64,000 bases of DNA, taken from positions 248,001-312,000 of the forward strand of contig DASZTW010000017.1 of assembly GCA_035547835.1 (NCBI GenBank), given 5' to 3'. Below, piece after piece: positions 8,806 to 33,713 of this stretch. The translations under genes were made by a program, and so were the position numbers. Origin of the DNA: Acidimicrobiales bacterium (GTDB lineage Bacteria; Actinomycetota; Acidimicrobiia; Acidimicrobiales; Iamiaceae). Position 1 is the stretch's first letter. The number at the start of each line of letters is the position of its first letter. The notes beneath the pieces were generated by a model. That model worked only from the letters and a program-made list of their open reading frames with translations, did not search any database and was not told the origin of the DNA.

Positions 8806-8821
8806 GCGACCCTCGCTTGTC

Positions 8822-9045: not shown

Positions 9046-9074
9046 GGTGATTTCTGCCGGAATGTCCTCATTTG
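9046..9074. repeat. 29-bp dispersed repeat, copy 2 (ahead of the EVE gene)
   Basis: GGTGATTTCTGCCGGAATGT followed by CCTCATTTG. Three mismatches to copy 1 at 5047-5075, same orientation. It ends 61 bases before the EVE-domain gene start, so a promoter or operator role is as plausible as a recombination scar. Confidence 0.6.
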
Positions 9075-9135
9075 TCGAGGGTTCCTGCCGATGGGAATCG
9101 GACGGCACGCGCGAAGCGCGTGAGAGGAGCAGACG

Positions 9136-12274: not shown

Positions 12275-12294
12275 CTGCCAAATCCACAGCGGCT

Positions 12295-15615: not shown

Positions 15616-16504
15616 CGCTGCTCCCCTAGGTAGCCCCATCCCAGTCGAGCACATCTGGCCGCGTTACGTCTGCGGGGTGCAGATCCCGCCGGCTTGCAGG
15701 CGACAGCCCCACCGCTCGGCGCGTACCGCCAGCAGGCCACTCAAGCAGCGGGACCCCATGAGACCAACTCCAACCGGGCGTCTCGGCGTTCGACGGGCCT
15801 GACCTCTGGAAGACCGACTCCCGTCACGTGGTCGGGTTCGAGGACGTGATCCTCCGTATGTTCAGGCCTCTATTGCGGGCTGGCTGGGGTCAGTGCGGCG
15901 CGGTTGGAGGAGTTCCGCCATCGAGCCGTCGGAGTCGGGAAGGTCCACACGACGCTCGAACGGCATTCACTGCGTGATTCAACCGTTCCGGTGAGTGTTC
16001 CACCACACCTTTCGACGGTGGGCTCGGGGGGACGCGGTGAAAGCGAGCACGTCGGTCCTCGCATCTCACATCGACGCGACGGCGAGAGGGAACCGCTCGG
16101 CGAGTGTCAGCCTCGTCCCAGCGCGCCGCGTTGGCGGCGAGGTCGGTGAGCGTGAAGATCGACCGGAATTCACTAACGACACCCCGCGAAGTGCCGAGAC
16201 TGCACGCTCATTTCTGAACCAGGCACGTTTCGTAAGCTCCGCGCGATGTCACCGAGGACCGGTATGGTCCGGGCATGGGCGGTCATCTCGCTGACGTGGA
16301 CAAGAGCGTCCCCTCGGACGCGCTCGGCCGACTGCACCTGCGCGAGGCGATCACGTGGACCCTTGGTCACGATCTTCGGACCATGTCTAGCCGGCTCCAA
16401 CATCGTTCGGTGGTGGCGTGTCACTTGTTCGCGCCCCGTGGCCGCTGGGCTACCGGTGGACGCTGCTCGACGGCACAGTCCTATCCATTCCAAGGAGGAT
16501 CAGT
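15616..16504. other. Long gap between the McrBC and TIR genes, no supported gene
   Basis: About 890 bases in which all frames give short, compositionally odd peptides. A frame at 15763-15870 (plus) reads P-D-L-W-K-T-D-S-R-H-V-V-G-F-E-D-V and could be a gene scrap, but it has no start and I cannot name it. Near 16260 there is a GGACC/GGTCC inverted pair around GGTAT. The end of the gap carries the strong ribosome site of the TIR gene. It probably contains the divergent promoters of mcrB and the TIR gene. Confidence 0.5.
16492..16499 (+). promoter_or_regulatory. Strong Shine-Dalgarno site fixing the TIR gene start
   Basis: AAGGAGGA lies 5 bases before GTG 16505, an almost perfect anti-16S match. 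It decides the start against an upstream ATG at 16418, which would add 29 residues of different composition. Confidence 0.8.
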
Positions 16505-17695
16505 GTGAGTGAGTTCGCCGCATTCTGGAGCTATGTTCACGAAGACGACGACGCCGAAGGTGGCAGAATCCGCGCCTTGGCTACCTTTCTGGAGAAACGT
16601 GTTCAACTGCTGACCGGTTCGGCCTTCTCAATTTTCATCGATAGCGACTCTCTCGCCTGGGGCGATGAATGGGCGGACAGGATCGACGAGGCACTGGTGA
16701 AGACAACATTCTTCGTGCCGGTGGTGACACCTCGATATTTCCAGAGCGCTAGCTGTCGGGAAGAGCTAATAAAGTATTCGACGGCGGCGAAGCGAACAGG
16801 GCTGACTGAGCTCATCATGCCTATCCACTATGTAACGGTCTCGGGTATGGATTCTGCAGAACATTCCGGTGACGAGTTGGTCGACCTGATGCGTACATAT
16901 CAATGGGAAGACTTCCGAGAGGTTGCCCTCGAGGATCCGAACTCCAGCAACTACCGCAAGGCAGTCCAGAACCTCGCGACACAGCTTATTGACCGAGCCA
17001 AGACTGCCGACTCGAAGCCGGCAAGTTTGATGGCAAAAGCGAACGAACCGCAAGCACAAGAGGCATTGGCGCGGAATGACGACCTGCCTGTAGACGATGA
17101 TACCGGCCCTGGGCTAGCAGATGTCTTGGCCGACGGCGAGACTGCCTTGACACAATTTGCAGAAATCTTTACGGAGCTTGGGCCGCTGATAGAGGGGATT
17201 GGCAACCGCATTGAGCAAGCGACTGCGGACGTAGAGGCGAATGACAAGAAGGGCAAGGGATTTGCCGGTCGTATACTAGTATTTCGACGTCTTGCATCGG
17301 AGCTTGATGAACCCGTAGATAGTGTCGAGACTCTGGCTCACGCTGCCTTAGATCGACTGCTGACAATCAGTCCTATGATGACCCTCTTGATGCAGCTACT
17401 GCGATCAGAGCCGACGCAGATTGCCGAAACGATACCCACTTTTGTTGATCCACTCCAGAGCATGGTGGCCTCCGCCGAAGAGGGCCTCGCGTCAGCGGAG
17501 CAGATGGCAGAGGAGGTGGGAAGGATCGCCTCGATGTCCAAGGACTTGAGACCACCGGCAAGACGACTAGAACGCTCCCTACGCCAGCTGGTCGACACAA
17601 GAACACTCTTCCGCTCATGGTCGCAAGAGGCCGGTGAGCTAAGAGCGCTTGCGGCCGCGCAGAAAGAAGCGATCAGCCCATCGGGTGGAAGCTAG
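16505..17695 (+). CDS. TIR-domain protein with helical C-terminal domain
   Basis: A 396-residue protein. Residues 4-150 form a TIR (or TIR-like, SEFIR-type) domain: F-A-A-F-W-S-Y-V-H-E-D-D, F-S-I-F-I-D-S-D-S-L-A-W-G, F-F-V-P-V-V-T-P-R-Y-F, S-C-R-E-E-L and L-I-M-P-I-H-Y. The S-C-R-E-E-L glutamate matches the position of the catalytic Glu of NAD-cleaving TIRs. The rest (residues 200-396) is almost all helix with amphipathic stretches, no transmembrane segment and no recognised sensor. Base composition is visibly less GC-rich, with AT-containing codons such as AAA, ATA and TTT, so it was probably acquired recently. Abortive-infection NAD hydrolysis is the family expectation. Confidence 0.8.
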   Translation: MSEFAAFWSYVHEDDDAEGGRIRALATFLEKRVQLLTGSAFSIFIDSDSLAWGDEWADRIDEALVKTTFFVPVVTPRYFQSASCREELIKYSTAAKRTGLTELIMPIHYVTVSGMDSAEHSGDELVDLMRTYQWEDFREVALEDPNSSNYRKAVQNLATQLIDRAKTADSKPASLMAKANEPQAQEALARNDDLPVDDDTGPGLADVLADGETALTQFAEIFTELGPLIEGIGNRIEQATADVEANDKKGKGFAGRILVFRRLASELDEPVDSVETLAHAALDRLLTISPMMTLLMQLLRSEPTQIAETIPTFVDPLQSMVASAEEGLASAEQMAEEVGRIASMSKDLRPPARRLERSLRQLVDTRTLFRSWSQEAGELRALAAAQKEAISPSGGS

Positions 17696-17852: not shown

Positions 17853-20672
17853 ATGGCCACGGGGAAGGCGGCGTTGTCGCTCATCGCGCCGGGGGCGCAG
17901 GTGGTTGTGCGCGACGAAGAATGGCTGGTGCGAGCCGTTCAGTCGACGCGCGCCGATGGGCTGATGGTGCGCGTGATCGGCACTTCGGAGCTGGTGCGCG
18001 ACCAGGAAGCAACGTTCTTCACCGAGCTCGACGACGTGCAGGCGCTGCGCCCGGAGGACACCCGCCTGGTTGCCGACGACACCCCCCACTTCCGACGGAG
18101 CCGCCTGTACTTGGAGGCGTTGCTCCGCAAGACACCGCTGCCGATGGGCGAGTCGCGGCTCGCGGTTGGCCACCGCCAGCTGCTCGACGAGCTCGACTAC
18201 CAGCGCAGGCCGGTGCAGGTCGCGCTGGAGGCGCTACGGCCGCGGCTGCTCATCGCCGATGCGGTCGGGCTTGGCAAGACGCTCGAGGTGGGGATGCTGC
18301 TGTCGGAGCTGATCCACCGGGGCCGTGGTGAACGCATCCTCGTGGTGACTCCGCAGCACATCCTCGAACAGTTCCAGCTCGAGTTGTGGACGCGCTTTGC
18401 GATCCCGCTGGTGCGCCTTGACTCCGAAGGCATCCAGCGAGTGCGCCAGAAGATCCCGGCCACCCGCAATCCGTTCACGTTCTACAAGCGGGCGATCATC
18501 TCGATCGACACGCTCAAGAACACGGGCCGGTACCGCCATCACCTCGAGGGGATCCGCTGGGACGCGGTGGTGATCGACGAGTGCCACAGCCTCATCAACC
18601 AGGGCACGCTGAACAACCAGCTCGCACGGGTGTTGGCGCCTCGCACGGAGGCGTTGATCCTGACGAGCGCCACCCCGCACAATGGCAAGCCGGAGTCTTT
18701 CGCGGAGCTGGTGCGGATGCTCGATCCCACTGCGATCGCCGACCCCTCGTCGTACGAACGGCGAGATATCGAGCATCTCTACGTGCGGCGACACAAGCAC
18801 TCCAACGAGGTGTCGGCAGAGGTGGGCAGCGCGTGGGCCGATCGGCTCGACCCGGTGGGCGTCCACGCAAACGCCACCGCTCCGGAAGAAGCGGTCTTCG
18901 ACGAGCTGGCTGATGTGTGGCTCCGCCCAACCTCTGGCAGCGCGCCCAGCAAGGGCAGGGGCCGCAGCTTGTTCCCGTACACGCTCCTCAAGGCGTTCTT
19001 GTCGTCGCACCATGCCGCTGCCGAGACGATCGCGAATCGACGCAAGACGCTCGCCTCGTCGGTGCCCGACGACCCCGACGCCGAGGCCGAGGACGTTGCC
19101 CTCGAGCGCCTCGCTGGCCTGGTCGACAGCATCGACGACGAGTCCGCCTCGAAACTGGCCGCGCTGGCGTCGTGCCTGCGGGAGATCGGCATCGGTCGAG
19201 GAAGTTCCACCCGAGCCGTCATCTTCTCGGAGCGGCACGCCACGCTCGAGTGGTTGGCCAGCACCTTGCCGCCCTTGCTCAAGTTGAGCGCGGGTGCCGT
19301 TCGCGTGCTGCATGGCAGCCTCGCCGACGTCGACCAGCAAGACATCGTGGAGGAGTTCGCGCTTGCCGACAGCAAGGTGCGGCTGCTGCTCACCGGCGAC
19401 ATCGCGTCGGAGGGCGTGAACTTGCACCGCGAGTGCCACCACCTCATCCACTTCGACCTTCCGTGGTCGCTCATCCGCATCGAGCAGCGCAACGGCCGGA
19501 TCGACCGCTACGGGCAGCGCCACAACCCGGACATCAGAGCGGTGCTGTTGCGCACCGCCAACGACAAGATCGGCGGCGACCTCGACGTGCTCGACAAGCT
19601 CCTCGACAAGGAGCACGCCGCGCACAAAGCCTTGGGGGATGCTGGGTCGCTGATGGGCCTGCACTCTGCCAAGGAGGAAGAGGACAAGATCACGCAGGCC
19701 GTCGCCGATGGCGAAGAGATCGATGAGGTGGTGCCCGACTCGCCCGCGGAGTTCGACCTGCTGATGGCGATCGCTGGGGACTCGGCCACCGACCCGGTGG
19801 AAACGACGGGCACCCTCAGCCTGTTCGCGAACGACGCGGAGTTCGTCGACGAAGCGATCCACGAGGTGTTCGAGGACCCGAACGAGTCGCTTGACGTGCA
19901 CCGTGAGCCCGAGCACGAGCTGCTCTCGTTCGTGCCTCCGGAGGATCTGCGCCGGCGACTGGAGGTGTTGCCGCAGAGCTACCTCAAGGAACGCAAGGTG
20001 CTCGAGCGCGTGAAGGTCACGTCGAGCCGGACGGTGGCTGAGGAGTCGCTTCGCCTCGCCCGCGAGAGCTCCGACTCGTTGTGGCCCGAGGTCGTGCACC
20101 TCTCGTCGCAGCACCCGTTGGTGGACTGGTTGTCCGACAAGTTGCTGGTGGAGCTCGGCCGCAATGAGGCACCGGTGCTGATCGGCGCGGTTGAGTCGCC
20201 GACGTTCTTGGTGCAGGGGGTGTACTCGAATCGTCGCGGTCAGGCCACGGTCGTGGAGTGGTTCGCCGTCGACGGCTTGCCGGACCACGCGCGCGTCCGG
20301 TCCATCAGGGAGGTGCTCGACAGCGCCGGCGTGGGGCCCACGATGGCGAACCCAGGTCCAGCGGCTCAGTTGGCGTCGCTCGAAACGCTTGTGCCCGCTG
20401 CCGTCGAAGCAGGCCGACGCCACATGGGCGACGTGAAGGCGGACCGCACCGCTTCGGTGGCGGCCCGTCTCCGCGATCACCAACGGCGCTTGTCGGCGTG
20501 GCGCAAGACGTCGAAGGCGCTCATCGGTGACCTCTCGGCTGAACGCACCCGCGCCCGCCGCGCGCAAGAGGTCGACGACATCACCGCTGGCACCGAAGCC
20601 CTGATCGAGTCGCTCGAGACGGCTGGCGGTCCGTTGGTGCGCGTGGTCGCGGTGATCGCGAGCGGCTCATGA
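17853..20672 (+). CDS. SNF2-family helicase, DrmD-like, first gene of the DISARM-like operon
   Basis: A 939-residue protein; ATG 17853 has GGGCGAGG upstream and a TTG lies just before it. The SF2 SNF2 core has Walker A A-D-A-V-G-L-G-K-T (residue ~134), the DExx box V-V-I-D-E-C-H-S (residue ~240), T-S-A-T-P-H-N-G-K, and in the second RecA lobe G-D-I-A-S-E-G-V-N-L with Q-R-N-G-R-I-D-R-Y-G-Q (residue ~545). This is the HepA/RapA-type arrangement of DrmD in class 1 DISARM. The 3' third is unrecognised and probably contacts partners. Its stop overlaps the next start (ATGA), so synthesis of the first two subunits is coupled. Confidence 0.85.
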   Translation: MATGKAALSLIAPGAQVVVRDEEWLVRAVQSTRADGLMVRVIGTSELVRDQEATFFTELDDVQALRPEDTRLVADDTPHFRRSRLYLEALLRKTPLPMGESRLAVGHRQLLDELDYQRRPVQVALEALRPRLLIADAVGLGKTLEVGMLLSELIHRGRGERILVVTPQHILEQFQLELWTRFAIPLVRLDSEGIQRVRQKIPATRNPFTFYKRAIISIDTLKNTGRYRHHLEGIRWDAVVIDECHSLINQGTLNNQLARVLAPRTEALILTSATPHNGKPESFAELVRMLDPTAIADPSSYERRDIEHLYVRRHKHSNEVSAEVGSAWADRLDPVGVHANATAPEEAVFDELADVWLRPTSGSAPSKGRGRSLFPYTLLKAFLSSHHAAAETIANRRKTLASSVPDDPDAEAEDVALERLAGLVDSIDDESASKLAALASCLREIGIGRGSSTRAVIFSERHATLEWLASTLPPLLKLSAGAVRVLHGSLADVDQQDIVEEFALADSKVRLLLTGDIASEGVNLHRECHHLIHFDLPWSLIRIEQRNGRIDRYGQRHNPDIRAVLLRTANDKIGGDLDVLDKLLDKEHAAHKALGDAGSLMGLHSAKEEEDKITQAVADGEEIDEVVPDSPAEFDLLMAIAGDSATDPVETTGTLSLFANDAEFVDEAIHEVFEDPNESLDVHREPEHELLSFVPPEDLRRRLEVLPQSYLKERKVLERVKVTSSRTVAEESLRLARESSDSLWPEVVHLSSQHPLVDWLSDKLLVELGRNEAPVLIGAVESPTFLVQGVYSNRRGQATVVEWFAVDGLPDHARVRSIREVLDSAGVGPTMANPGPAAQLASLETLVPAAVEAGRRHMGDVKADRTASVAARLRDHQRRLSAWRKTSKALIGDLSAERTRARRAQEVDDITAGTEALIESLETAGGPLVRVVAVIASGS

Positions 20673-23600
20673 TCTTCGACAGCATCACGAACAGAGGTGA
20701 GTTCTTCTCCGATCACTACCTCGACGCGCTGATCGGCAACGATCTCGCTGGGCTGCGCAAGCGTTGGGACGACGAGGAGGGCCGCGGCCAGTCGACCGCC
20801 CGCACGCGTGTGCGCTCGCTCGCCGCGGAGTTCTACCGGGCAAAGACCCAGGTGGTCGAAGGAACCGCAGCCGCGCATGACGACAACCTTCGGGAACTGC
20901 ACGACCGGGTGCTCGAAGCCCTCGGCTTCGGCCCCAAGCGACAATCGATCGAGCCGGTGCGCGGGGGCGTCGAAACACTCACGTTCGAGGTAGCCCACGC
21001 AGAAGCGACACCGACCGGGTTGCTGCTCGTGGCGTTGGATCTCGGCTTCACCACCACGCTCGACGCCGCACTCGATCCCGACGCGGCAGGCCGCGTGTTG
21101 AGCCCGGTGCTGAGCGACGGCAAGGTGCTCCGCAAAGACCGCTTGTCGACGTTGCCGGTCAGCGACGTGGTGGCCGCGCTCTTCGCTGTGGACGAGCCAC
21201 CGCGCTACGTGCTGTTGCTCGCCGGCGTCGTGGTGGTGCTCGCCGACCGGGCGAAGTGGGGCGAAGGGCGGTTCCTGGCCGTCGACCTCGACCTCGCGCT
21301 CAGCCGTCACGACACCAAGGCGAAAGGCGAACTGGAGACGGTGGCCGCATTGTTCTCTGCCGACGCGCTGGTGCCAGTCGATGGCACCTCGGTGCTCGAC
21401 GGGCTGGTGAGCTCCTCGCAGAAGCACGCCGTTGGCGTGTCGAAGGACTTGCGCGACGGCATTCGCCAGTCGATCGAGCTGCTCGCCAATGAGGTCATCC
21501 AACAGCGGCTTGCGGCCAACCGAGCCGTGTACAACGTGCCCCACCTGGCGACCGACCTCACCCGCGAGTCGCTGCGGTTCCTGTACCGACTGCTGTTCCT
21601 GCTGTACGCGGAGACCCGGCCCGAGCTCGGCATCTTGCCGCTCGATCACCCCGAGTACGTGCAGGGCTATGGGCTCGACCGCCTCCGCGAGCTGGCGCTC
21701 ACCAAGCTCACCAGCGACAAGGCACGCAACGGCAGCCACCTCCACGAGTCGCTGAACCTGCTGTTCCGACTGGTGAACGACGGCTACCACGCAGTGCACG
21801 CGGAGCAGGCGATGCTCACCGACCTTCCCGGCGAGATGTCCGAAACCGAAGGGCTGCGCTTCGAGCCATTGCACTCCACGTTGTTCGATCCGGCGGCCAC
21901 GCCGCTGCTCGACGGCGTGCGCCTGCGCAACGACTGCCTCCAGCAGGTGTTGGCGTTGTTGTTGTTGTCGAAGGAGCGCAAGGGCCGCGAGCGCGGGTTC
22001 GTGTCGTACGCGCAGCTCGGCATCAACCAGCTCGGCGCGGTGTACGAGGGCCTGATGGCCTACTCCGGGTTCTTCGCCGATGAAGACCTGTACGAAGTGG
22101 CCAAGGGCGGCGACCCCGACAAGGGCACGTGGATGGTGCCTGTCGCACAGGCCGACGCGTATGACGACGACGTGTTCGTACGGCGCGACGACCCGCAGAC
22201 GGGCCGGCAAACTCGCGTGCGCCATCCCAAGGGGTCGTTCGTGTTCCGGCTCTCGGGCCGCGACCGGCAGCGCAGCGCGAGTTACTACACGCCTGAAGTG
22301 CTCACGCAATGTGTGGTGAAGCACTCCCTTGCCGAGCTGCTCGACCAGGACGGAGAGACCACGCCGGCGGAGCGGATCCTCGGCCTCACAGTGTGCGAGC
22401 CCGCGCTTGGCTCGGGTGCGTTCGTGAACGAGGCCATCAACCAGCTCGCGGCCGAATACCTGCGGCGCCGCCAAGATGAGCTCGCCGAGCTGATCGACCC
22501 CGACCAGTACACCGCCGAGCTGCAGAAGGTGAAGGCCCACCTCGCGCTCCACCAGTGCTACGGGGTTGACCTCAACGCCACGGCAGTGGAGCTGGCAGAG
22601 GTGTCGCTGTGGCTCAACGCCATGCACCCAGGCCTCCAGGCACCGTGGTTCGGCCTGCACCTGCGGCGCGGCAACTCGCTGATCGGCGGCCGCCGCGCCG
22701 TGTACCAGCGAGCGCAGCTCGCCAAGAGCGAGTGGTTGAAGCGCCCGCCGACGCCACGCCCGCTCGGCGCAGAGCCGTTAGCCGACGGCGAGATCCACCA
22801 CTTCTTGCTGCCCGCCCACGGCTGGGCCGCAGTCGGCGACGCGAAGGAAGCCAAGGAGCTCCGCTCCGACGATGCCAAAGCCCTGCGCGACTGGCGCAAA
22901 GCCGTCACCAATCCACCGAGCAAGCGCGACGCCGACCGGCTCGTGGCCCTGGCCCGCCGCGCGGAGGACCTCTGGGGACGCGCACAGCAGGTTCTCGAAC
23001 GAGCCGAAGCCGACCTGCGCCGACCGATCCAGATCTGGGGTGCAACCCAAAGTGCCTCCAGCTCGCCGCTGAGTCGCGCCGCGCTGGAGACCCTCCTGCA
23101 GGACCCCGAATCCGCGCTTGGGCGACTCCGGCTCGTGATGAACGCCTGGTGCGCGCTGTGGTTCTGGCCCATCGTCGGGCGCGACGGGGCCGAGCGGCCC
23201 GTGCCGCCAAGTTTCAGCGAGTGGCTCGACACGATCGAGGCCATCCTCGGCGTCGATGACGCACACAAGCCGCCAGGCCAGCTCAACCTCTTCGACGATT
23301 TCGAAGCGATGCTGCAACGCGACCGCCAGCTCACCCTCGAGTTCGGCAGCCGCCCGATCCCCGATGTGTTGGCCAGCCATCCCTGGCTGCTCGAGGCGCA
23401 AGTGATCGCGGAGCGCGAAGGCTTCTTCCACTGGGAGCTCGAGTTCGCGCCGGTCTTCGAGCGAGGTGGCTTCGATCTCCAGGTCGGCAACCCGCCGTGG
23501 GTCCGGCTTGATTGGAAGGACGACATCACGCTTGCCGAGTTCGACCCCTGGTTCGGGTTGACCGACAAAGCCCCGGAGGCGCGGCGCCGTGAGCGGCGCG

Positions 23601-25339
23601 CTGACGTGCTCTCGGATGGGCCAGCCGAGGGCGTCTACCTGCGAGAGGTAGGGGACAGCGCGGGCCTCACAGCGAACCTTGGTTCGGCAGTTGAACGGCC
23701 GGTGCTCTCCGGCATCCGCACGAATCTCTACATGGTGTTCATGGACACGGTCTGGCGGCACGCGTCAGCGGCGGGGGTTTCCGGTCTGCTCCATCCCGAG
23801 AGCCACTTCACCGACCCAAAGGGCGGGCCCCTTCGCCGAGGCGCCTACCACCGGCTGCGGCGGCACTGGCAATTCTTGAACGGGCTGTTCCTCTTTGATG
23901 ACATCAATCACAAGACGATCTTTGGCGTCCACATCTATGGGCCACAGCAGCATGCAGAGTTCCTTCAGATGTCATACCTGCAGTCGCCCGACATGGTGGA
24001 TGGGTCGCTCGAGCACGATGGGTCCGGCGAGGTTCCGGGGATCCAATACCCCTCGGGGGGCTGGGATCTTCGGCCGCATCGGGCGCGCGTGGTCACCGTG
24101 GACGAGCCGGTGTTGGCGTCGTGGGCGCTGTTGTTCGACGAACCGGGGACTCCGGCGGACGAAGCCCGGCTGCTGCGGCCGGTGACGACCGCCGACCTCG
24201 AAGCGTTGGTCGTGCTCGCCAACCAACCCACCCGTCTCGCCGATCACAAGTACCACTGGACGCCGGGATTCAACGAGACGAATGCCAAGACCGACGGGAC
24301 GATCATCTGGGAGACGAAGATCCCGGACTCCTGGGATGAGGTGATCCTGCAGGGTCCCCACTTCACGGTGGCCACGCCGTTCGCCAAGCAGCCGAACGAG
24401 CACTGCAAGCACAACCAGGACTACAGCGCCTGGGACCTCGAGACGCTTCCTGAACGGGTGATCCCCCGCACCAACTACCAGCGAACCTGCGACCGCGACA
24501 CCTACGAGTCCCGCATCGACCACTGGAACGGCCGCCCGTCCACTGACTATTGGCGGCACGTGCACCGTGAGATGACGCAACCCGGGCTCGAGCGATCCGT
24601 GCAGGGTGCTGTGCTTGCCCCTGGTCCACTGCACATCCATGCGTGCTTGACATACGGTTTCGATGATCAGGCATCGCTCGTCCGATTTGCCGGCCTGATG
24701 AGCAGCATCCCGATCGACTACCTGTTTAAGGCGTCGGGCGCGGGACACGTCGCGGAGCACCAGCTGAAGCGTGTTCCGCTGCCCAACCGCTCGGCCTACG
24801 ACGCGGCTCTTGCCTCGCGAACCCTGCGACTCAACTGCCTCACGGCCGACTACGCACCGCTTTGGGAGGAGCTCTACGACCCGACCTGGAACGACGACGC
24901 CTGGACAGACCCAACGTCCATGCGGCCCCCGCTCGGCGACGTGGGGCCACGCTGGACGATGGCCACGCCGTTGCGAACAGACTACGACCGACGGATGGCG
25001 CTGGTGGAGATCGACGCCCTGGCTGCGCTGATGCTGGGCCTGACGGCCGAACAGCTCTGCGCGATGTATCGCACGCAGTTCGCGGTGCTGCGCAAGTACG
25101 AGTACGGAATGGTGTTCGACGCGCAGGGTCGCAAGATCGCCAAAGATCACCAGACGGCCGGTGTCAACCAGCAGAAGGGCGACTACGAGCGGGTGCAGGC
25201 GTTCATCGCGGGCGACGATGTTGATGTTGCGCCGTACGAGCCACCGTTCACGCGTCCCGACCGCGAGAAGGAGATGACGCAGGCCTACGAGGTGTTCCAA
25301 CGGCGCTACGGCGGCGGATCGGCGGCAGCGAGCTCATGA
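20669..25339 (+). CDS. Large Eco57I-type N6-adenine DNA methyltransferase, DrmMI-like
   Basis: A 1556-residue protein. Motif X-like S-A-S-Y-Y-T-P-E-V-L (residue ~537), the SAM-binding C-E-P-A-L-G-S-G-A-F-V (residue ~577) and the catalytic N-P-P-W-V-R (residue ~940) define a gamma-class N6-adenine methyltransferase of the Eco57I/PglX type. The C-terminal 500 residues probably hold target recognition (F-N-E-T-N-A-K-T and later). The N-terminal 500 residues begin with F-F-S-D-H-Y-L; no nuclease motif was assigned there, so a type IIG activity cannot be excluded. It is longer than typical DrmMI. It overlaps both neighbours by four bases (ATGA). Role: self-marking of host DNA by adenine methylation, inferred. 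Confidence 0.87.
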   Translation: MIFDSITNRGEFFSDHYLDALIGNDLAGLRKRWDDEEGRGQSTARTRVRSLAAEFYRAKTQVVEGTAAAHDDNLRELHDRVLEALGFGPKRQSIEPVRGGVETLTFEVAHAEATPTGLLLVALDLGFTTTLDAALDPDAAGRVLSPVLSDGKVLRKDRLSTLPVSDVVAALFAVDEPPRYVLLLAGVVVVLADRAKWGEGRFLAVDLDLALSRHDTKAKGELETVAALFSADALVPVDGTSVLDGLVSSSQKHAVGVSKDLRDGIRQSIELLANEVIQQRLAANRAVYNVPHLATDLTRESLRFLYRLLFLLYAETRPELGILPLDHPEYVQGYGLDRLRELALTKLTSDKARNGSHLHESLNLLFRLVNDGYHAVHAEQAMLTDLPGEMSETEGLRFEPLHSTLFDPAATPLLDGVRLRNDCLQQVLALLLLSKERKGRERGFVSYAQLGINQLGAVYEGLMAYSGFFADEDLYEVAKGGDPDKGTWMVPVAQADAYDDDVFVRRDDPQTGRQTRVRHPKGSFVFRLSGRDRQRSASYYTPEVLTQCVVKHSLAELLDQDGETTPAERILGLTVCEPALGSGAFVNEAINQLAAEYLRRRQDELAELIDPDQYTAELQKVKAHLALHQCYGVDLNATAVELAEVSLWLNAMHPGLQAPWFGLHLRRGNSLIGGRRAVYQRAQLAKSEWLKRPPTPRPLGAEPLADGEIHHFLLPAHGWAAVGDAKEAKELRSDDAKALRDWRKAVTNPPSKRDADRLVALARRAEDLWGRAQQVLERAEADLRRPIQIWGATQSASSSPLSRAALETLLQDPESALGRLRLVMNAWCALWFWPIVGRDGAERPVPPSFSEWLDTIEAILGVDDAHKPPGQLNLFDDFEAMLQRDRQLTLEFGSRPIPDVLASHPWLLEAQVIAEREGFFHWELEFAPVFERGGFDLQVGNPPWVRLDWKDDITLAEFDPWFGLTDKAPEARRRERRADVLSDGPAEGVYLREVGDSAGLTANLGSAVERPVLSGIRTNLYMVFMDTVWRHASAAGVSGLLHPESHFTDPKGGPLRRGAYHRLRRHWQFLNGLFLFDDINHKTIFGVHIYGPQQHAEFLQMSYLQSPDMVDGSLEHDGSGEVPGIQYPSGGWDLRPHRARVVTVDEPVLASWALLFDEPGTPADEARLLRPVTTADLEALVVLANQPTRLADHKYHWTPGFNETNAKTDGTIIWETKIPDSWDEVILQGPHFTVATPFAKQPNEHCKHNQDYSAWDLETLPERVIPRTNYQRTCDRDTYESRIDHWNGRPSTDYWRHVHREMTQPGLERSVQGAVLAPGPLHIHACLTYGFDDQASLVRFAGLMSSIPIDYLFKASGAGHVAEHQLKRVPLPNRSAYDAALASRTLRLNCLTADYAPLWEELYDPTWNDDAWTDPTSMRPPLGDVGPRWTMATPLRTDYDRRMALVEIDALAALMLGLTAEQLCAMYRTQFAVLRKYEYGMVFDAQGRKIAKDHQTAGVNQQKGDYERVQAFIAGDDVDVAPYEPPFTRPDREKEMTQAYEVFQRRYGGGSAAASS

Positions 25340-28300
25340 TCCCGTCGCTCGTCGCCGATGAGGTGCGCGCTGCGGTCGTCGAGTACCTGTCGACGACCTT
25401 CGCGCTCAGCGACGACGAGACCCGTCGGGCGCTCACCGAGTTCCTGAGTGACGAGACCGACGGCATCTTCCGCGGCCCCTACCTCCGGGTACGCACACCA
25501 TTTCGATCAGTAGGCACCGACTGGGAGCCGCCGATCGATTGGCTCCCCGACGGGTTCGCTCCCTACATCCACCAGGCACGCGCCTTCGAACGGCTGTCGT
25601 CGCTCGACCACGCCCCGCAGCCCACGATCGTCACGACCGGAACCGGGTCGGGTAAGACCGAGTCGTTCCTGTATCCGATCCTCGACCACTGCGTGCGAGC
25701 CCACGCCCACGGCGAACAAGGCGTGAAAGCGCTGCTGCTGTACCCGATGAACGCGCTGGCCACCGACCAAGCGCGCCGTCTCGCCGAACTGCTGCGCAAC
25801 GACCCGGGGTTGGTCGGGCTCACCGCTGGCATCTACATCGGCAGCGAAGGCGGCCGGCACACCACGCTCGGCCCCGATCACCTCGTCGACGATCGCAACA
25901 CGCTGCGGGCAAACCCGCCCGACATCTTGTTGACCAACTACAAGATGCTCGACTTCTTGTTGCTCCGCCGCGAAGACCGCGACTTGTGGGTGTCGAACCC
26001 CGCCGGCGCCCTGCGCTACATCGTGCTCGACGAGTTCCACACCTACGACGGCGCACAGGGAACCGACGTGGCGATGCTGCTGCGGCGCCTCGGCGTCACC
26101 ACCGGCCACGCCGAGCCTGGACGGCCCCTCGGTTCCATCACCCCTGTGGCCACCTCGGCCACGCTCGGCTCGGGGCACGCTGCCGGCGATGCGCTCCGCG
26201 AGTTCGCCGAGCGCGTCTTCGGCACACCGTTCACCGGCGACGCGCTTATCGGTGAGCAACGACAGACAGCCGAGGAAGCGTGCGGCATCACCGACTACGA
26301 GCTGCCGATCCCCGATGTGGCCGACATCCTCGAGGTCGCCGACGACGACCTCGACGCACTCGCGATGGGGTTCACCGGCGAGAGTGCACCACTCGACCCA
26401 GTGACGCTCGGCTCCAAGCTGTTGTCGCACACGTTGACACGAGCCGTGTTGAGCGCTGTCGGTGAGCAGAGCAAGTCATGGGCTGAAGCCGTGGAGTCGG
26501 TGGTGACCCGAGCACCGAACTGGGGCGCGGCATTGCAACGTGATCCAGCGGCCGTCGGCGAAGCCCTGTCGCGCTACCTCGCCTTGCTGGCCGTCGCTCG
26601 CCGCGCCGCCCCTTCAGGAGACCAGCGGCCGCTGTTCAGCATCGAGGTGCAGCTCTGGGTGCGAGAAGTATCCCGCCTGCTTCGCTCCGTCAGCCCGTCG
26701 CCCCGGTTCCGGTGGTCTGACAGCGCGGTCCCCGAAGACGACGCCGACCCGGCGCCTGAGCTGCCGTCGATCTACTGCCGCCACTGCGGCCGAGCCGGCT
26801 GGATGGCTGTGCACTCCGAGTTCGACGGGGGCATCCGCTTCGAGGCAGGCCAGGCCTACACCCAGTCGATGCAGAGCCCAGCCAGGAACCGGGCCCTGGT
26901 CCGCGCCACCGAGGACGAACCCGATGTGCGGCACCTCGACCCGCAGCGGCAGACCCTCGTTGGGACCGCCACCGAGACGACCATCCCTGTGCTCGTCACC
27001 CCAGGCGACGACCAGGCCCGCCGTTCGGAGTGCCCGTCGTGCGGGCAGGCCGAAGGGATCCGATTCCTCGGGTCGCGGGTGGCCAGCCTTGCGTCGGTGT
27101 GCATCACGCAACTGTTCGGCTCGAACCTCGTCTACCAGGAGGAGCGCAAGCTCCTGGCGTTCACCGACTCGGTGCAAGACGCGTCGCACCGCGCAGCCTT
27201 CTTCGCCGGGCGGACCTACCGCTTCAACTTCCGCACTCGGCTGGCCGAGATCGTGCAACAGCACGGCCAGCTCCCGCTGCACGACCTCGGCGGGGAAGTG
27301 CTCGCCGAAGCCGGCGATGATCCCGCGGCCATCCATGCGCTCACCCCACCCGACCTGCTGCGACACCCCACCGTGCGCACCCTGTGGACCGATGCCCCGA
27401 TCGCCGCCGGTCGCGACGTGCTCGAACAGCGGCTCAGCCTCGAAGCGGACCTGGAGCTCGGGCTGCGCTCGACAATGGGCCGCACCCTCGAGCTCACCCG
27501 CGTCGTGGCCGCCCGAGTCGACCTGCAGCACCTCACCGAGCTTGCCGACCTGGTGGCCGAAGCCCACCAGCACCTCACGGGCAACCAAGTGCTCGCCGAT
27601 ACCGTGCCCGGCTACGAGGTGTACGTGCGCGGCCTGGTAGAGCGCCTTCGCCTACGTGGCGCGATCTTCCACCCGTGGCTCAAGCCCTATGTGAACGACG
27701 ACGGCAACGTGTGGCGTATCTGGGGCGGCCGACCCGACGGCATGCTCGCCTTCCCCCAAGGCGTGAGCCGGCCCGCATTCGCAACCACTGGGCCCGCCAC
27801 TGCCGGGAGCAAGGGCGCGTCGTTCGACTCGATCACCGCGCTGGGCTCGACGCCCTCGTGGGCAGTCGACTGGGCGATCCGCTGCCTCGGCGTGACGCCC
27901 CAAGAGGGACGTGACCTGAACCTCCGCGCGTACGAGCTCCTCGCCGCCGAGGGCGTGCTCGACGCACGAACCACCGCCGGTCACCACACCCTCTACGGCC
28001 TCGACCCACACCTCATCGTCGTCACGAGCATCGACGACGACCTCGCCGAGGAGGCCATGGTGCGATGCCCAGTGTGCGTGGGCCACCATGCCGTCGCGCC
28101 CGACCAGCTCGTGCACTGGGAAGGCACGCCCTGCCTGAGATACCGCTGCCCCGGTCGCTATACCGCCGCGCCACCCGAGCCCTCGAACTTCTACCGCACC
28201 CTCTACCGCTCCGGGGCGATGCGGCGCGTGGTCACCGACGAGCACACCGGCCTGCTCGACCGCCCCGACCGCGAGCGAATCGAGAGCGCCTTCAAGGCCG

Positions 28301-31300
28301 GCACTGACCCCGACGCGCCCAACGTGCTCACCTGCACGCCCACCATGGAGCTCGGCATCGACATCGGTGACCTATCCGCTGTGATGCTCACTTCGGTGCC
28401 GCGCTCGCCCGCCTCGTACATCCAGCGGGTCGGCCGCGCGGGACGGCTCACCGGCAACTCGTTCGTGGCCGCTGTCATGCCCACCGAACCGCGGGCGCTC
28501 TACTACCTCGCCGACCCCGAGCAGATGATCGCGGGCGAAGTGCGGCCCCCGAGCTGCTACCTCGACGCCGTCGAGATCCTCTGCCGTCAGTACCTCGCCT
28601 TCCTGATCGACCGGACCGCGACCGGATCGGTGCCCGCCCCTCCCCTGTCGAATCGGATCGGCGACCTCATGCGCACCGGCCTCGACCCCGGAGGCTGGCT
28701 CCGAGCAGTGCTCGACTCGAGCACCACCGACCCTGCCCACGTCGAATCGTTCCTGGCGCAGTTCGGCGACGAGGTGAGCCCCGAGAGCGCCGACGCAGTC
28801 CGACGCTTCGCCGACGGCGGCATCGAGCTCGCCGCGAAGACCGCCGCCGAGGACTGGAACGAGCGGCTCGCGGATCTCGGCCGGCGACGCGACCGACTGA
28901 AAGCCGGCATCGACAAGCTCGAAGAGCTCAAGCACCGAGACGACGACCAAGAAGGAGACCTCAAGCGCCTCAAGGGAGAACGCCGAGCGGTCATCGACAT
29001 GATGCGGCGCGACCGCCAGGAGTACTCACTCAGCGCGCTCGAACGCCTCGGACTGCTGCCGAACTACGAGCTGATCGACGATGCCACGGAGCTCGAAGCG
29101 TCGCTGTGGTCCTACGACGAGACCGGCGGCTTCCAAGTCGACAACTACCAGTACCAACGACCGGCGAGCATCGCCCTCAGTGAGTTCGCGCCCGCGAACA
29201 GCTTCTACGTGCGCGGCCACAAGCTGCTGATCGACGCGCTCGACATCGGCACGTCGATCGAGCTGCTCTACGAGCGATGGCGCCTCTGCCCCGAGTGCGG
29301 CTTTGGTGCCGACGAGAACAGCCGGAGCACCTGGAGCGAGTGCCCGCGCTGCGGCACGACGGCTATCGCCGACGCCGGCGCGGCCCACCAACTGCTGCGG
29401 TTCCGTCGTTCGTATTGCTCCGACTCGGAGGAACGGGCGCGGGTCTACGACGAAACCGACGATCGCGAACGGGTCTCCTACAACATCGTGCAGTCAGTCG
29501 ACGTGGACCCAGTCGACGTCGTGGAAGCACACGAGCACAAGCATGTGACCTTCGGGATGGAGATGGCCCGAGCCGCCACGATCCGCACCCTCAACCTGGG
29601 GCCGTCCACCTGGAACGGCGAGCGGACGATGATCGCCGGTCAGGAAGCAACCGCGCCGCGCTTTCGCACCTGTCGCTATTGCGGAGCCGTCTACGGCGCT
29701 CGCCGCAAAGGCGAGATCGAGCATCGCGGGTGGTGCCAAGTGCGTTCAGGGGCGCGCACCGAAGCCTGGGATCATCCCGTGCTCATCCACGAGATGCGCA
29801 CCGAGGCGGTGCGCTTGCTCCTGCCTGTCTCGACGTTCGAGGTCGACGAGCGCCTCGCCAGCTTCAAAGGCGCGCTGCTTCTGGGCTTGCGGCTCGACTT
29901 CGGGGGCGAACCGGAGCACCTCCAGATCATCACGGCCGACCACCCAGGCTCTGGCGGACCCGGTCGGCGCCGCTTCCTCGTGCTGCATGACACCGTGCCG
30001 GGCGGCACCGGCTACTTGGCCCGGCTGGCCGACCCAGACCGCCTCGCGCACATCCTGCGCACAGCCCGCGAGGCGATCTCGCGGTGCCCGTGCCGCGACG
30101 AGGGCAAGCTCGCCTGCCACCGTTGTCTGCTCGCGGGCGTGGCGCCCCGCGAGATCGGGCGGGTTTCACGAACGCTGGCGCTCGAGCTGCTCGATGAGCT
30201 CCTCGAGCCTTGGGAGTTCGACCGCGTGGCCAGCGTCGCCGAGATCAAGATCGGCGGGCTCGAAGAGTCCGAACTGGAGCGACGGTTCAAAGTCGCCTTC
30301 AAAGCGTGGGCAGCCAAGACCAGCACCGGTGATCCGATCGAGGCCACCATCACGTCCAAACCACGACCCGGCGGCCGCGAAGCACTCGAGCTGCGGCTCA
30401 CCACGGCCGACGACACCTGCCGGTGGCTCATCGAAGAGCAATGCGATCTCGACACCGACCCTCCGACACGACCGGACTACCTCATCGTTCGCCAAGACGA
30501 CGTGTCGCCGGCAGTCGCCGTCTACCTCGACGGCTTCCAGTACCACGCCTCACCCGAGAACTGCGTGCTCGCCGGCGACGCCATCAAGCGCCGAGGCGTA
30601 CGAGCCGCCGGGCACCTCGTGTGGAGCCTGACCTGGCGCGACGTGCTCGCATTCCACGAGGCGACAGAAGCCGCGGTCACATCCCCACCGCCCGATAAAC
30701 GGCTCCTCACACGAGACGGTCGCCGCACCGCACAGGACGTCCACCACCAGCTCGGCGACGGAACACTTGACGTGGCCGCAGCGGACCACAACCCGATGCG
30801 GCTTCTGATCGAGTTCCTCGCCAAGCCCGACATGGAGTCCTGGGAACAACTTGCCGCATCGGTGAGTGCCGGCCTCGCCCGGCAAGGGTCCCAACAAGCC
30901 GCTGCCCAGGCCGAGTGTGCTGCGGTGTTGCGCGCTGCACTTCACCTCCAGCCCTCCCCGTCGACCGCTGGCGAAGGCTTGGTGACGGCGGCCGCGCAGA
31001 TTGCAGAAGGCCTCCCGGTGACGGCAATCCTTGATGCTCGGGCCGAGGTGGGTGGCCAGGCTGCGCAACGCTGGACCGTCGTCGCGACGATTGACGACCG
31101 CCCCGAAGCGCTGCGTGAACCGGAACATCCAGCGCGATGGGGCGCGTGGCTGCAATTGGCAAATGTGCTGCAGTTCCTCCGCCGGGATCGCCAGGCCTGG
31201 TTCACCGCGGTGAGCGAGGCCGACTCGATCGACATCGACGACTTCGATGTGGTGTTGTCGCCGTTCACGCCGGTGCTAACAGAGTCCGAGGCGTCGCCCG

Positions 31301-31602
31301 ACGGACCTGGCGACGCCGCCCGCGAGGAGCTCGACCTGATCGTCGACCATGCAGCGCGCGCGCTGGTCGAGCAAGTTCTCGCGGTCGGGGGGCCAATCCC
31401 GGAGGCGGGCTACGAACCGGGCGGCACCGACGGGTGGCTGCTGGAGGTTGCGTGGCCAGCGCAGCGCGTCGCGGTGCTTGCGGCGGGGGCGCACGACGAT
31501 GCCGCCCTCACCGCGTGGCTGACTGCTCACGATTGGGAAGCGCGGCCCGCCAACGCGTGGACGGCCGATGAGCTCAGGTCGTGCATCGAGGAGCGCAGCT
31601 GA
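25336..31602 (+). CDS. Giant DEAD/DEAH helicase + DUF1998 + nuclease-fold fusion (DrmA-DrmB/DruE-like)
   Basis: A 2088-residue protein. N-terminal helicase lobe: T-G-T-G-S-G-K-T (residue ~100), L-D-E-F-H-T-Y-D-G (residue ~231) and T-S-A-T-L-G-S-G. Second lobe: T-M-E-L-G-I-D-I-G-D-L and Q-R-V-G-R-A-G-R (residue ~1030). Between the lobes and after lie CxxC zinc sites (YCRHCG, CPSCG, CPVC, CPECG, CPRCG, CRYCG). DUF1998 follows at residues ~1500-1610, with L-H-D-T-V-P-G-G-T-G-Y and a C-x-C...C-x2-C cluster. Residues ~1640-1770 resemble Vsr/DUF559-type nucleases: R-P-D-Y-L-I, V-A-V-Y-L-D-G-F-Q-Y-H-A and W-S-L-T-W-R-D-V. DISARM keeps DrmA and DrmB separate; Druantia DruE is a comparable single giant. 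The last 300 residues are unrecognised. Confidence 0.85.
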   Translation: MIPSLVADEVRAAVVEYLSTTFALSDDETRRALTEFLSDETDGIFRGPYLRVRTPFRSVGTDWEPPIDWLPDGFAPYIHQARAFERLSSLDHAPQPTIVTTGTGSGKTESFLYPILDHCVRAHAHGEQGVKALLLYPMNALATDQARRLAELLRNDPGLVGLTAGIYIGSEGGRHTTLGPDHLVDDRNTLRANPPDILLTNYKMLDFLLLRREDRDLWVSNPAGALRYIVLDEFHTYDGAQGTDVAMLLRRLGVTTGHAEPGRPLGSITPVATSATLGSGHAAGDALREFAERVFGTPFTGDALIGEQRQTAEEACGITDYELPIPDVADILEVADDDLDALAMGFTGESAPLDPVTLGSKLLSHTLTRAVLSAVGEQSKSWAEAVESVVTRAPNWGAALQRDPAAVGEALSRYLALLAVARRAAPSGDQRPLFSIEVQLWVREVSRLLRSVSPSPRFRWSDSAVPEDDADPAPELPSIYCRHCGRAGWMAVHSEFDGGIRFEAGQAYTQSMQSPARNRALVRATEDEPDVRHLDPQRQTLVGTATETTIPVLVTPGDDQARRSECPSCGQAEGIRFLGSRVASLASVCITQLFGSNLVYQEERKLLAFTDSVQDASHRAAFFAGRTYRFNFRTRLAEIVQQHGQLPLHDLGGEVLAEAGDDPAAIHALTPPDLLRHPTVRTLWTDAPIAAGRDVLEQRLSLEADLELGLRSTMGRTLELTRVVAARVDLQHLTELADLVAEAHQHLTGNQVLADTVPGYEVYVRGLVERLRLRGAIFHPWLKPYVNDDGNVWRIWGGRPDGMLAFPQGVSRPAFATTGPATAGSKGASFDSITALGSTPSWAVDWAIRCLGVTPQEGRDLNLRAYELLAAEGVLDARTTAGHHTLYGLDPHLIVVTSIDDDLAEEAMVRCPVCVGHHAVAPDQLVHWEGTPCLRYRCPGRYTAAPPEPSNFYRTLYRSGAMRRVVTDEHTGLLDRPDRERIESAFKAGTDPDAPNVLTCTPTMELGIDIGDLSAVMLTSVPRSPASYIQRVGRAGRLTGNSFVAAVMPTEPRALYYLADPEQMIAGEVRPPSCYLDAVEILCRQYLAFLIDRTATGSVPAPPLSNRIGDLMRTGLDPGGWLRAVLDSSTTDPAHVESFLAQFGDEVSPESADAVRRFADGGIELAAKTAAEDWNERLADLGRRRDRLKAGIDKLEELKHRDDDQEGDLKRLKGERRAVIDMMRRDRQEYSLSALERLGLLPNYELIDDATELEASLWSYDETGGFQVDNYQYQRPASIALSEFAPANSFYVRGHKLLIDALDIGTSIELLYERWRLCPECGFGADENSRSTWSECPRCGTTAIADAGAAHQLLRFRRSYCSDSEERARVYDETDDRERVSYNIVQSVDVDPVDVVEAHEHKHVTFGMEMARAATIRTLNLGPSTWNGERTMIAGQEATAPRFRTCRYCGAVYGARRKGEIEHRGWCQVRSGARTEAWDHPVLIHEMRTEAVRLLLPVSTFEVDERLASFKGALLLGLRLDFGGEPEHLQIITADHPGSGGPGRRRFLVLHDTVPGGTGYLARLADPDRLAHILRTAREAISRCPCRDEGKLACHRCLLAGVAPREIGRVSRTLALELLDELLEPWEFDRVASVAEIKIGGLEESELERRFKVAFKAWAAKTSTGDPIEATITSKPRPGGREALELRLTTADDTCRWLIEEQCDLDTDPPTRPDYLIVRQDDVSPAVAVYLDGFQYHASPENCVLAGDAIKRRGVRAAGHLVWSLTWRDVLAFHEATEAAVTSPPPDKRLLTRDGRRTAQDVHHQLGDGTLDVAAADHNPMRLLIEFLAKPDMESWEQLAASVSAGLARQGSQQAAAQAECAAVLRAALHLQPSPSTAGEGLVTAAAQIAEGLPVTAILDARAEVGGQAAQRWTVVATIDDRPEALREPEHPARWGAWLQLANVLQFLRRDRQAWFTAVSEADSIDIDDFDVVLSPFTPVLTESEASPDGPGDAAREELDLIVDHAARALVEQVLAVGGPIPEAGYEPGGTDGWLLEVAWPAQRVAVLAAGAHDDAALTAWLTAHDWEARPANAWTADELRSCIEERS

Positions 31603-33713
31603 TGCCCAAGTTGGTCATCTCCAGCGAGGGCCTCAGCGACTTCGGCGACCTGCCCAAGCCGCAGCGAGCCAAGGTCCGCGACGTGTTCGCCAAGTTCCAA
31701 GCACACCAACACGCCGGGCTCCACCTCGAGAAGCTCGAAAACCCCAAAGACCCTCGCGTTCGCACCATCCGCATCGACCAGCAATACCGCGGGATCGTGA
31801 TGGCGCCCGACCAGGGCGACACCTTCACGCTCGTCCGCGTGCTCACTCACGACAAAGCCGACAACTGGGTGAGCCGCAACACGTTTCGCGTGAACGAGGC
31901 AACGGGTGCGCTCGAAGTCCAGGACCTGGTCGCGATCCAGGAGCTCGGCGCTGAGGTAGTAGGTGAGTCCACAACACCGGCCACGTTGTTCGTGGGGCGC
32001 TCGGACAAAGACTTCCAGCAGCTTGGCATCCCCGCCGAGCTCATCCCGCTGATTCGCACCATCAGCGACGACGCTCAGCTCGACGCACTGGCCACACTGC
32101 TCACACCAGGCCAGGAGATCGCCCTCACCGGCCTCGCCACGGGTGCAACCGTTGAGGAGATCTGGGCCGAGCTGGTGGCCGACGAAGACCCAGGCGCCGT
32201 CGACACCGACGACCTCGATGCCGCGCTGGAACGGCCCGTCACACGAGCCGGTTTCTTCGTCACCGCCGACCTCGAAGAGCTGCAAGAAGTGTTGGACCAG
32301 CCGTTCGCGGCGTGGCGGGTGTTCCTCCATCCCGACCAACGGCGCTTGGCCTACCGCCGGGAGTACAACGGCCCCGTACGCGTCACCGGAGGCGCCGGAA
32401 CCGGCAAGACGACCGTTGCGCTGCACCGTGCCCGCGCCCTCGCCGAGCTGGGCTCCCCCGATGAGCACCGCATCTTGTTCACGACCTTCACCCGGAGCCT
32501 CACCGCCGCCATCGAGGAACAACTACGGCTGCTTGGGGGGCCAGCACTCGCAAATCGGGTCGACGTCATCAACGTCGACCGCCTCGCCGCACAGATCGTG
32601 CGTGAAGCTGAAGGCCGAGCGCCCCGCCTCGCAACCGACGACGAGGTCCGCGAGCTGTGGCGCGACGTTGTCGACGAGAACGGCACCCCGTTCACACCCA
32701 CGTTCCTCGACCAAGAGTGGCGCCACGTGGTGCTCGGCCAGGGCCTCGCCGACCGAGACACCTACTTGACCGCAGCCCGGCCCGGTCGGGGCGTGCGGCT
32801 CACGCGGCGCCAACGGATCCAGGTGTGGCGGTGCGTTGAGGACTTCACGAACCGCCTCGTGGGCTCCTCGCGACGGACGCACCTCCAACTCGCTGACGCT
32901 GCCGCCAGCGCGCTCCAAGCCAGATCGGTGAAGCCGTACGACCACGTGCTGGTGGACGAGGCGCAAGACCTCCACCCCGCGCAGTGGCGCATGCTGCGCG
33001 CCGCCGTGGCGGTCGACACCAAGAACGACATGTTCATCGTGGGCGACACGCACCAGCGCATCTACGACAACCGGGTCACCCTCTCGCGGGTGGGCATCAA
33101 CGTGCGCGGGCGGTCGCGTCGGCTCCGGATCAACTACCGGACTACGCACGAGATCCTGCGCTGGTCACTCGGCCTCCTGCGCGGGGAAGCCTTCGATGAC
33201 ATGGACGACTCCACCGACACGCTCGAGGGCTACCGGTCACAGATGCACGGCGCGGCCCCGACGGTCGAGGGGTATCCCTCGACTGCCCAGGAGCTCGCGG
33301 CCATGGCCGGCGCGGTGCAGGCATGGCTCGACGCCGGCGTCGCTCCTGGCGAGATCGGTATCGCTGCCCGTACCCGCGACCGCTGCACGGTGGCCGTGCA
33401 GGCACTCGAAGGGGCCGGGATCGCGGCCGTGGTGCGCGAACGCGACAAGGAGATCCCGCCCGATCGGATCGCCGTAGCCACGATGCACCAGATGAAGGGC
33501 CACGAGTTCCGATGCGTCGCCATCGTCGACGCGAGCGAAGGGCAGGTCCCCTCTCCCTACGCCCTGACCCCCGAGGCAGTCGACCCAACAGAGCACGCCA
33601 ACGACCTAAAACAAGAGCGCAGCCTGCTCTACGTCGCCTGCACCCGTGCTCGCGACGACCTGCGAATCAGCTGGTCCGGCGCACCCAGCGAGTTCCTCGC
33701 ACCCCTGCTCTGA
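31602..33713 (+). CDS. UvrD-like SF1 helicase with RelE-like N-terminal domain
   Basis: A 703-residue protein. ATG 31602 shares its A with the stop of the previous gene (TGATG) and has GAGGAG upstream, so it is coupled to the operon. Residues 1-95 resemble RelE/YafQ-type small beta domains (HLEKLENPKDPRVRTIRI, Y-R-G-I-V, L-V-R-V-L-T-H-D-K-A-D-N-W). Residues 255-703 form an SF1A helicase: G-G-A-G-T-G-K-T (residue ~263), L-V-D-E-A-Q-D-L-H-P (residue ~449), G-D-T-H-Q-R-I-Y, T-M-H-Q-M-K-G-H-E-F and Y-V-A-C-T-R-A-R-D-D-L. It is not part of canonical DISARM, and its position as last coupled gene suggests a DNA-unwinding or processing role in this system. Confidence 0.85.
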   Translation: MPKLVISSEGLSDFGDLPKPQRAKVRDVFAKFQAHQHAGLHLEKLENPKDPRVRTIRIDQQYRGIVMAPDQGDTFTLVRVLTHDKADNWVSRNTFRVNEATGALEVQDLVAIQELGAEVVGESTTPATLFVGRSDKDFQQLGIPAELIPLIRTISDDAQLDALATLLTPGQEIALTGLATGATVEEIWAELVADEDPGAVDTDDLDAALERPVTRAGFFVTADLEELQEVLDQPFAAWRVFLHPDQRRLAYRREYNGPVRVTGGAGTGKTTVALHRARALAELGSPDEHRILFTTFTRSLTAAIEEQLRLLGGPALANRVDVINVDRLAAQIVREAEGRAPRLATDDEVRELWRDVVDENGTPFTPTFLDQEWRHVVLGQGLADRDTYLTAARPGRGVRLTRRQRIQVWRCVEDFTNRLVGSSRRTHLQLADAAASALQARSVKPYDHVLVDEAQDLHPAQWRMLRAAVAVDTKNDMFIVGDTHQRIYDNRVTLSRVGINVRGRSRRLRINYRTTHEILRWSLGLLRGEAFDDMDDSTDTLEGYRSQMHGAAPTVEGYPSTAQELAAMAGAVQAWLDAGVAPGEIGIAARTRDRCTVAVQALEGAGIAAVVRERDKEIPPDRIAVATMHQMKGHEFRCVAIVDASEGQVPSPYALTPEAVDPTEHANDLKQERSLLYVACTRARDDLRISWSGAPSEFLAPLL

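What the first reader, a model, noticed from the sequence alone, without database searches (positions are those of the whole stretch)
17853..33713. DISARM-like operon with fused DrmA-DrmB-nuclease and an added RelE-UvrD helicase
Four genes coupled by ATGA, ATGA and TGATG overlaps encode a SNF2 helicase, a giant N6-adenine methyltransferase, a DEAD/DEAH-DUF1998-nuclease fusion and an SF1 helicase. Seen: all motifs listed in the features. Known: class 1 DISARM is drmD-drmMI-drmA-drmB-drmC, with separate DrmA and DrmB and a PLD nuclease DrmC; Druantia has a single giant DruE but no SNF2 or adenine methylase. Inference: this is a hybrid or sister system in which the PLD nuclease has been replaced by a C-terminal Vsr/DUF559-like nuclease and a dedicated UvrD helicase.
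Basis: partly seen in the sequence, partly recalled or inferred. Interest (0 to 1): 0.9.

Follow-up and report, generated by a model that had tools for sequence, protein, structure and literature searches.

The report
ARMADA type II anti-phage operon
The four genes form a complete copy of ARMADA type II, a bacterial anti-virus system already described and tested in E. coli, here in an actinobacterial lineage; the operon is therefore a new member of a known system rather than a new one.

Summary
In detail: four co-directional genes at 17853-33713, coupled by ATGA, ATGA and TGATG overlaps, encode an SNF2 helicase, a large NPPW methyltransferase, a fused DEAD/DUF1998 helicase with a C-terminal nuclease, and a RelE-UvrD protein. 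All four proteins align with the E. coli ATCC 8739 operon (30-44% identity), and all eight residues mutated in the published E. coli work are conserved. It is not DISARM (no separate DrmB, no PLD DrmC, scores far below the cut-offs) and not Druantia III. The A-B-C-D order recurs across several phyla. Within the window's order it is patchy (8 of 298 genomes), as expected of a transferred defence system. A side result may be new: in relatives the armB|armC junction is a hotspot for nested cargo, often other defence genes (21 of 56 loci, against 1 of 42 and 4 of 76 at the other junctions). The window's own junction is empty.

The parts
17853..20672 (+). armA: BrxHII/DrmD/RapA-like SNF2 helicase, 939 aa
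   Evidence: Pfam SNF2-rel_dom and Helicase_C; DrmD 293 bits in PADLOC; 39% identity to E. coli ATCC 8739 ArmA, with K142 and D242 matching the tested K136 and D236
20669..25339 (+). armB: PglX/type IIG-like N6-adenine DNA methyltransferase, 1556 aa
   Evidence: Eco57I domain; PADLOC REase_MTase_IIG 1144 bits over the full length; G581 and NPPW N941 match E. coli G605 and N971
25336..31602 (+). armC: YprA/DruE-type DEAD helicase fused to the DUF1998 (MZB) module and C-terminal nuclease domains, 2088 aa
   Evidence: DEAD, Helicase_C, MZB; K107 and D232 match E. coli K110 and D234; alignment A1
30265..30834 (+). predicted active Vsr-like PD-(D/E)xK nuclease domain of ArmC (about residues 1644-1833; E1648, D1714, D1732-G1733, H1737, D1748)
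   Evidence: conservation over 35 relatives; hhalign to an annotated Vsr, E 1.3e-6 over 28 columns; I-Bth0305I catalytic domain Z 5.8
31333..31599 (+). second, predicted inactive nuclease-like domain at the ArmC C-terminus (about residues 2000-2088)
   Evidence: structural match to 3hrl, endonuclease-like protein, Z 7.7, 81 of 94 residues; lacks the D...DG...H residues of the first domain (sequence)
31602..33713 (+). armD: RelE-fold domain fused to a GajB/UvrD-type SF1 helicase, 703 aa
   Evidence: UvrD-helicase and UvrD_C; K269 and D452 match E. coli K266 and D454
31602..31928 (+). RelE-fold N-terminal domain of ArmD (about residues 1-109)
   Evidence: AlphaFold model pLDDT 90, PDB hits nearly all RelE/YoeB/YafQ

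Best explanation
The operon is a complete ARMADA type II anti-phage system. Most likely mechanism: ArmB methylates adenines in the host genome at a specific motif and also takes part in sensing. ArmA (SNF2) and ArmC (YprA helicase) load on and move along unmodified or otherwise foreign DNA. The Vsr-like nuclease at the end of ArmC cuts it, and ArmD, a RelE-fold domain on a UvrD helicase, processes the DNA or acts as a further effector. Shown elsewhere (E. coli, PMC12458937): anti-phage activity, need for all four genes, need for most of the ATPase and methylase motifs, and a direct, non-abortive mode. Shown here: the same gene set, order, fusions and catalytic residues. Inferred: methylation as self-mark, DNA cleavage by the Vsr domain, and any role of the RelE fold.
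For: Gene order, overlaps and domain content equal the published type II. All four proteins align with the E. coli ATCC 8739 operon, one of the two tested strains (A 39%, B 37%, D 38% in long alignments; C 44% and 30% in two pieces covering its N-terminus and residues 479-1842), and all eight tested residues are conserved. The ArmC ending fits the published active Vsr followed by inactive nuclease domains. The ArmD N-terminus has the RelE fold. A-B-C-D order in Tsukamurella, Streptomyces, E. coli, Pseudanabaena and Martelella plasmids and across genome loci. Patchy in the order (8 of 298 genomes), next to McrBC, an association reported for this cassette (PMC12458937, PMC11090510).
Against: The order of action and the self/non-self rule are unknown; loss of ArmB abolishes protection in E. 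coli, so the methylase is more than a protective mark. The Vsr assignment rests on conserved residues and weak matches; Foldseek alone gave nothing convincing. The RelE catalytic cluster is not clearly conserved (only R57, R63 and G102 are invariant in that domain), so RNase activity is doubtful. No expression or phage data for this organism.
Confidence: 0.95

Rival explanations
1. A divergent class 1 DISARM in which drmA and drmB have fused and drmC has been lost.
For: ArmA scores with DrmD (293 bits PADLOC, 323 bits NCBIfam) and ArmB with DrmMI (170 bits).
Against: DrmD and DrmA are far below the NCBIfam cut-offs (610 and 999). ArmC's best PADLOC match is DruE, not DrmA. No separate DUF1998 gene or PLD nuclease in the operon. 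ArmD is constant and not a DISARM part.
Confidence: 0.02
2. A Druantia type III-like system with a DruE helicase and extra genes.
For: ArmC's best PADLOC hit is DruE3 (305 bits).
Against: Only the helicase cores match DruE of E. coli ATCC 8739 (103 and 66 bits), against 530 and 230 bits for ArmC of the same strain. No druH; no PLD domain among the Pfam matches of the C-terminus.
Confidence: 0.02
3. A type IIG restriction-modification enzyme (gene 2) with neighbouring helicases by chance.
For: Gene 2 matches a PADLOC REase_MTase_IIG profile over its whole length at 1144 bits.
Against: The methylase sits in the same helicase operon across phyla. No nuclease domain was matched in gene 2. The PADLOC profile probably collects ArmB proteins under an automatic label (inference).
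Confidence: 0.01

Closest known systems
ARMADA type II (Bell et al. 2025, PMC12458937; E. coli NCTC 12900 and ATCC 8739)
   Same: Four genes armA-armB-armC-armD in the same strict order, same fusions, same catalytic residues, Vsr-type nuclease on ArmC, RelE domain on ArmD, McrBC neighbourhood, patchy distribution
   Different: About 30-44% identity to the E. coli proteins; host is probably a Solirubrobacterales-like actinobacterium (a close named relative of the operon is in Candidatus Siliceabacter); neighbours are McrBC and a TIR gene instead of Zorya and Druantia III
DISARM class 1
   Same: SNF2 helicase, PglX-like methylase and a YprA-type helicase with a DUF1998 module
   Different: DISARM splits DrmA and DrmB and has a PLD nuclease DrmC; no RelE-UvrD gene; profile scores below cut-off
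Druantia type III
   Same: Large fused DruE-type helicase, nearest to ArmC
   Different: DruH partner and PLD nuclease domains; no SNF2 helicase or methylase; low similarity outside the helicase cores
BREX with embedded auxiliary effectors (PMC12839542)
   Same: Precedent for extra nuclease effectors placed inside a core defence operon, as seen at armB|armC in relatives
   Different: Different core proteins (PglZ, BrxC and others)

Membership tests
ARMADA type II | Gene order BrxHII-like helicase, PglX-like methylase, YprA-like helicase, then GajB-like helicase | tested here: met
ARMADA type II | Fused YprA helicase with DUF1998 and a C-terminal Vsr-type nuclease | tested here: met
   DEAD, Helicase_C and MZB in one ORF; Vsr-like motif conserved and matched to an annotated Vsr; structural support weak
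ARMADA type II | RelE-like domain at the N-terminus of ArmD | tested here: met
   AlphaFold model and PDB matches
ARMADA type II | Residues whose mutation abolishes or lowers E. coli protection | tested here: met
   all eight conserved in the window
ARMADA type II | YprA helicase falls in the type II clade of the tree | not tested
   no tree built; inferred from pairwise scores and gene order
ARMADA type II | Direct, non-abortive anti-phage activity | not testable with these tools
   needs phage challenge
DISARM class 1 | DrmD at or above the equivalog cut-off | tested here: not met
   NF038317 323 bits against 610
DISARM class 1 | Separate drmA and drmB genes | tested here: not met
   helicase and DUF1998 are in one 2088-aa ORF
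DISARM class 1 | PLD nuclease DrmC in the operon | tested here: not met
   no PLD match in the four proteins
Druantia type III | DruH partner and DruE with PLD nuclease | tested here: not met
   no PLD match in the ArmC C-terminus; no DruH among the operon's PADLOC matches

The most novel reading that the evidence does not exclude
ARMADA type II works as a carrier for other defence genes: its armB|armC junction is a recurrent, often operon-coupled insertion point for unrelated defence modules (NsnABC, ShosA-like, Mokosh, pAgo-like, GmrSD/HEC-06, HEC-01, AbiD and others), perhaps as backups that fire when ARMADA is blocked. The window's copy has the empty junction. The hotspot is well supported in the sample; a functional link is speculation.
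Probability: 0.3. Interest if true: 0.55.

Novelty: new member of a known kind. Interest (0 to 1): 0.3.

Why it matters
It independently recovers ARMADA type II from raw sequence and shows it in another actinobacterial lineage with all tested catalytic residues kept, so the E. coli mutational results can be carried over as predictions. The PADLOC version used names the parts as DrmD, type IIG methylase, DruE and GajB, so such operons are easily misfiled. The junction hotspot gives a simple place to look for further defence genes.

Tried and rejected
Plain Foldseek of the 488-residue ArmC ending gave no convincing match; the second look gave moderate ones. HMM search of the same region against PDB sequences returned mainly designed repeat proteins, taken as artefact. 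No relative in the phage collection at E 1e-30. Tested whether the TIR gene 16418-17695 belongs to the system: no homologue near any ARMADA locus fetched, so rejected. Tested whether 'CD-only' loci are a separate two-gene system: armB was found in 10 of 11 of those genomes, in several upstream beyond a large insert, so rejected in the main; Corynebacterium riegelii lacks armB. Tested whether inserts arise by duplication of the armB or armC ends: traces in 3 of 21 only.

Full report
Observation. The window holds four co-directional ORFs at 17853-20672, 20669-25339, 25336-31602 and 31602-33713, joined by ATGA, ATGA and TGATG. Pfam finds SNF2/Helicase_C, an Eco57I-type methylase, DEAD/Helicase_C/MZB, and UvrD domains in that order.

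Identity. PADLOC labels the parts DrmD, REase_MTase_IIG, DruE and GajB/UvrD-like, which is why the operon looks like a hybrid. A literature search found the exact match: ARMADA type II, described by Bell et al. 2025 (PMC12458937). [quoted passage not shown] It reports protection of E. coli, need for all four genes, and a non-abortive mode.

Test of membership. The operon of E. coli ATCC 8739, one of the two tested strains, was fetched. ArmA, ArmB and ArmD align over most of their length (39%, 37% and 38% identity); ArmC aligns in two pieces (44% over its N-terminal 323 residues and 30% over residues 479-1842), while E. coli DruE of the neighbouring Druantia III matches only in the helicase cores. 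All eight residues mutated in the paper are conserved: ArmA K142 and D242, ArmB G581 and N941, ArmC K107 and D232, ArmD K269 and D452. The mutants were made in the NCTC 12900 system; the residue numbers fall on the expected motifs in ATCC 8739 without shift.

Nuclease and RelE domains. The ArmC ending keeps E1648, D1714, G1733, H1737 and D1748 in all 35 relatives aligned, and D1732 in 34 of 35. A profile comparison with an annotated Vsr protein gives E 1.3e-6, though over 28 columns only. In the AlphaFold model (pLDDT 88) the first domain resembles the I-Bth0305I catalytic domain (Z 5.8) and the last one an endonuclease-like protein (Z 7.7); both values are moderate, and plain Foldseek was negative. 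This fits the published layout of an active Vsr domain followed by inactive nuclease domains. The ArmD N-terminus models as a RelE fold with high confidence, and its top PDB matches are nearly all RelE, YoeB and YafQ toxins. The catalytic residues of RelE are not clearly kept, so its activity is open.

Against DISARM and Druantia. DrmD and DrmA scores are below the NCBIfam cut-offs; helicase and DUF1998 are fused; no PLD nuclease was matched in the operon. The system is therefore neither DISARM nor Druantia III, though it probably works on similar lines.

Distribution. The four-gene order is seen on plasmids of Tsukamurella, Streptomyces, E. coli, Pseudanabaena and Martelella (in the Tsukamurella record armC is annotated as two genes). 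In E. coli, 518 of 5426 complete genomes hold a close relative of the plasmid armC. Among 80 loci from one scan of species genomes, 39 show A-B-C-D directly and armD follows armC in 76 of 77 measurable loci. In the window's own order 8 of 298 genomes carry a relative of ArmC, counting the window's own. McrBC lies next to the operon in the window and in three relatives, in different orientations; the association is noted in PMC11090510 and PMC12458937. A close named relative of ArmC (49%) is in Candidatus Siliceabacter (Solirubrobacterales).

Side result. In relatives the armB|armC junction carries an insert of more than 500 bp in 21 of 56 measurable loci, against 1 of 42 at armA|armB and 4 of 76 at armC|armD (Fisher p 2e-5 and 3e-6). 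Three further loci appear to have inserts of about 11-12 kb (contig numbers matched by coordinates). Of the 21, about twelve have cargo that is co-directional and fills the gap like part of the operon. The cargo is varied: NsnA and NsnC, NsnB-like, ShosA-like, PDC-S08, pAgo-like, HEC-06/GmrSD-type, HEC-01, PDC-S28, MkoA and MkoB (Mokosh), TmtA; AbiD sits before armC in one locus without armB. The sample is the best 80 hits and not corrected for relatedness, so the p-values are indicative. The text of the ARMADA paper that I read does not mention it (and sections read); its supplement was not available. BREX operons are known to hold embedded effectors (PMC12839542).

Mechanism. Best reading: ArmB marks host DNA and helps sense; ArmA and ArmC translocate on foreign DNA; the ArmC Vsr domain cuts; ArmD assists or adds a second effector. 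Only the requirement for the genes and motifs is shown, in E. coli; the rest is inference.

Verdict. A well-formed new member of a known system. Interest is modest for the operon itself and somewhat higher for the junction hotspot.

Noticed in passing
L037, L048, L053, L061, L066, L073, L074, L094, L095, L097, L099, L102, L104, L109 and others, between armB and armC: armB|armC junction holds inserts over 500 bp in 21 of 56 loci, far more than the other two junctions; cargo is varied and often matches other defence systems.
   Followed up: partly
window 16418-17695 (+): TIR-domain protein (FxsC-like N-terminal region) directly upstream of armA on the same strand; no homologue near other ARMADA loci fetched.
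   Followed up: partly
window 11042-15654 (-): McrC and a 1119-aa McrB with an N-terminal DUF4357 domain, divergent from armA; McrBC also adjoins ARMADA in L020, L044 and L120.
   Followed up: partly
window 2440-10137: DUF4143 AAA ATPase, ADP-ribosylglycohydrolase, HNH protein and EVE-domain protein beside the defence genes.
   Followed up: no
L014:1-6416 and 22380-24173: Tsukamurella plasmid: a UvrD, a helicase and a separate DUF1998 gene lie just upstream of the ARMADA operon and an extra UvrD just downstream, as if a second split YprA-type cassette were stacked on it.
   Followed up: no
L122:8991-17681: armC and armD relatives in a same-order genome are broken over several frames, a likely decaying or misassembled copy.
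   Followed up: no
L118/L119 (G577): Partial extra copies of the armB 3' and 5' ends lie near the operon, with armB and armC about 4 kb apart.
   Followed up: partly
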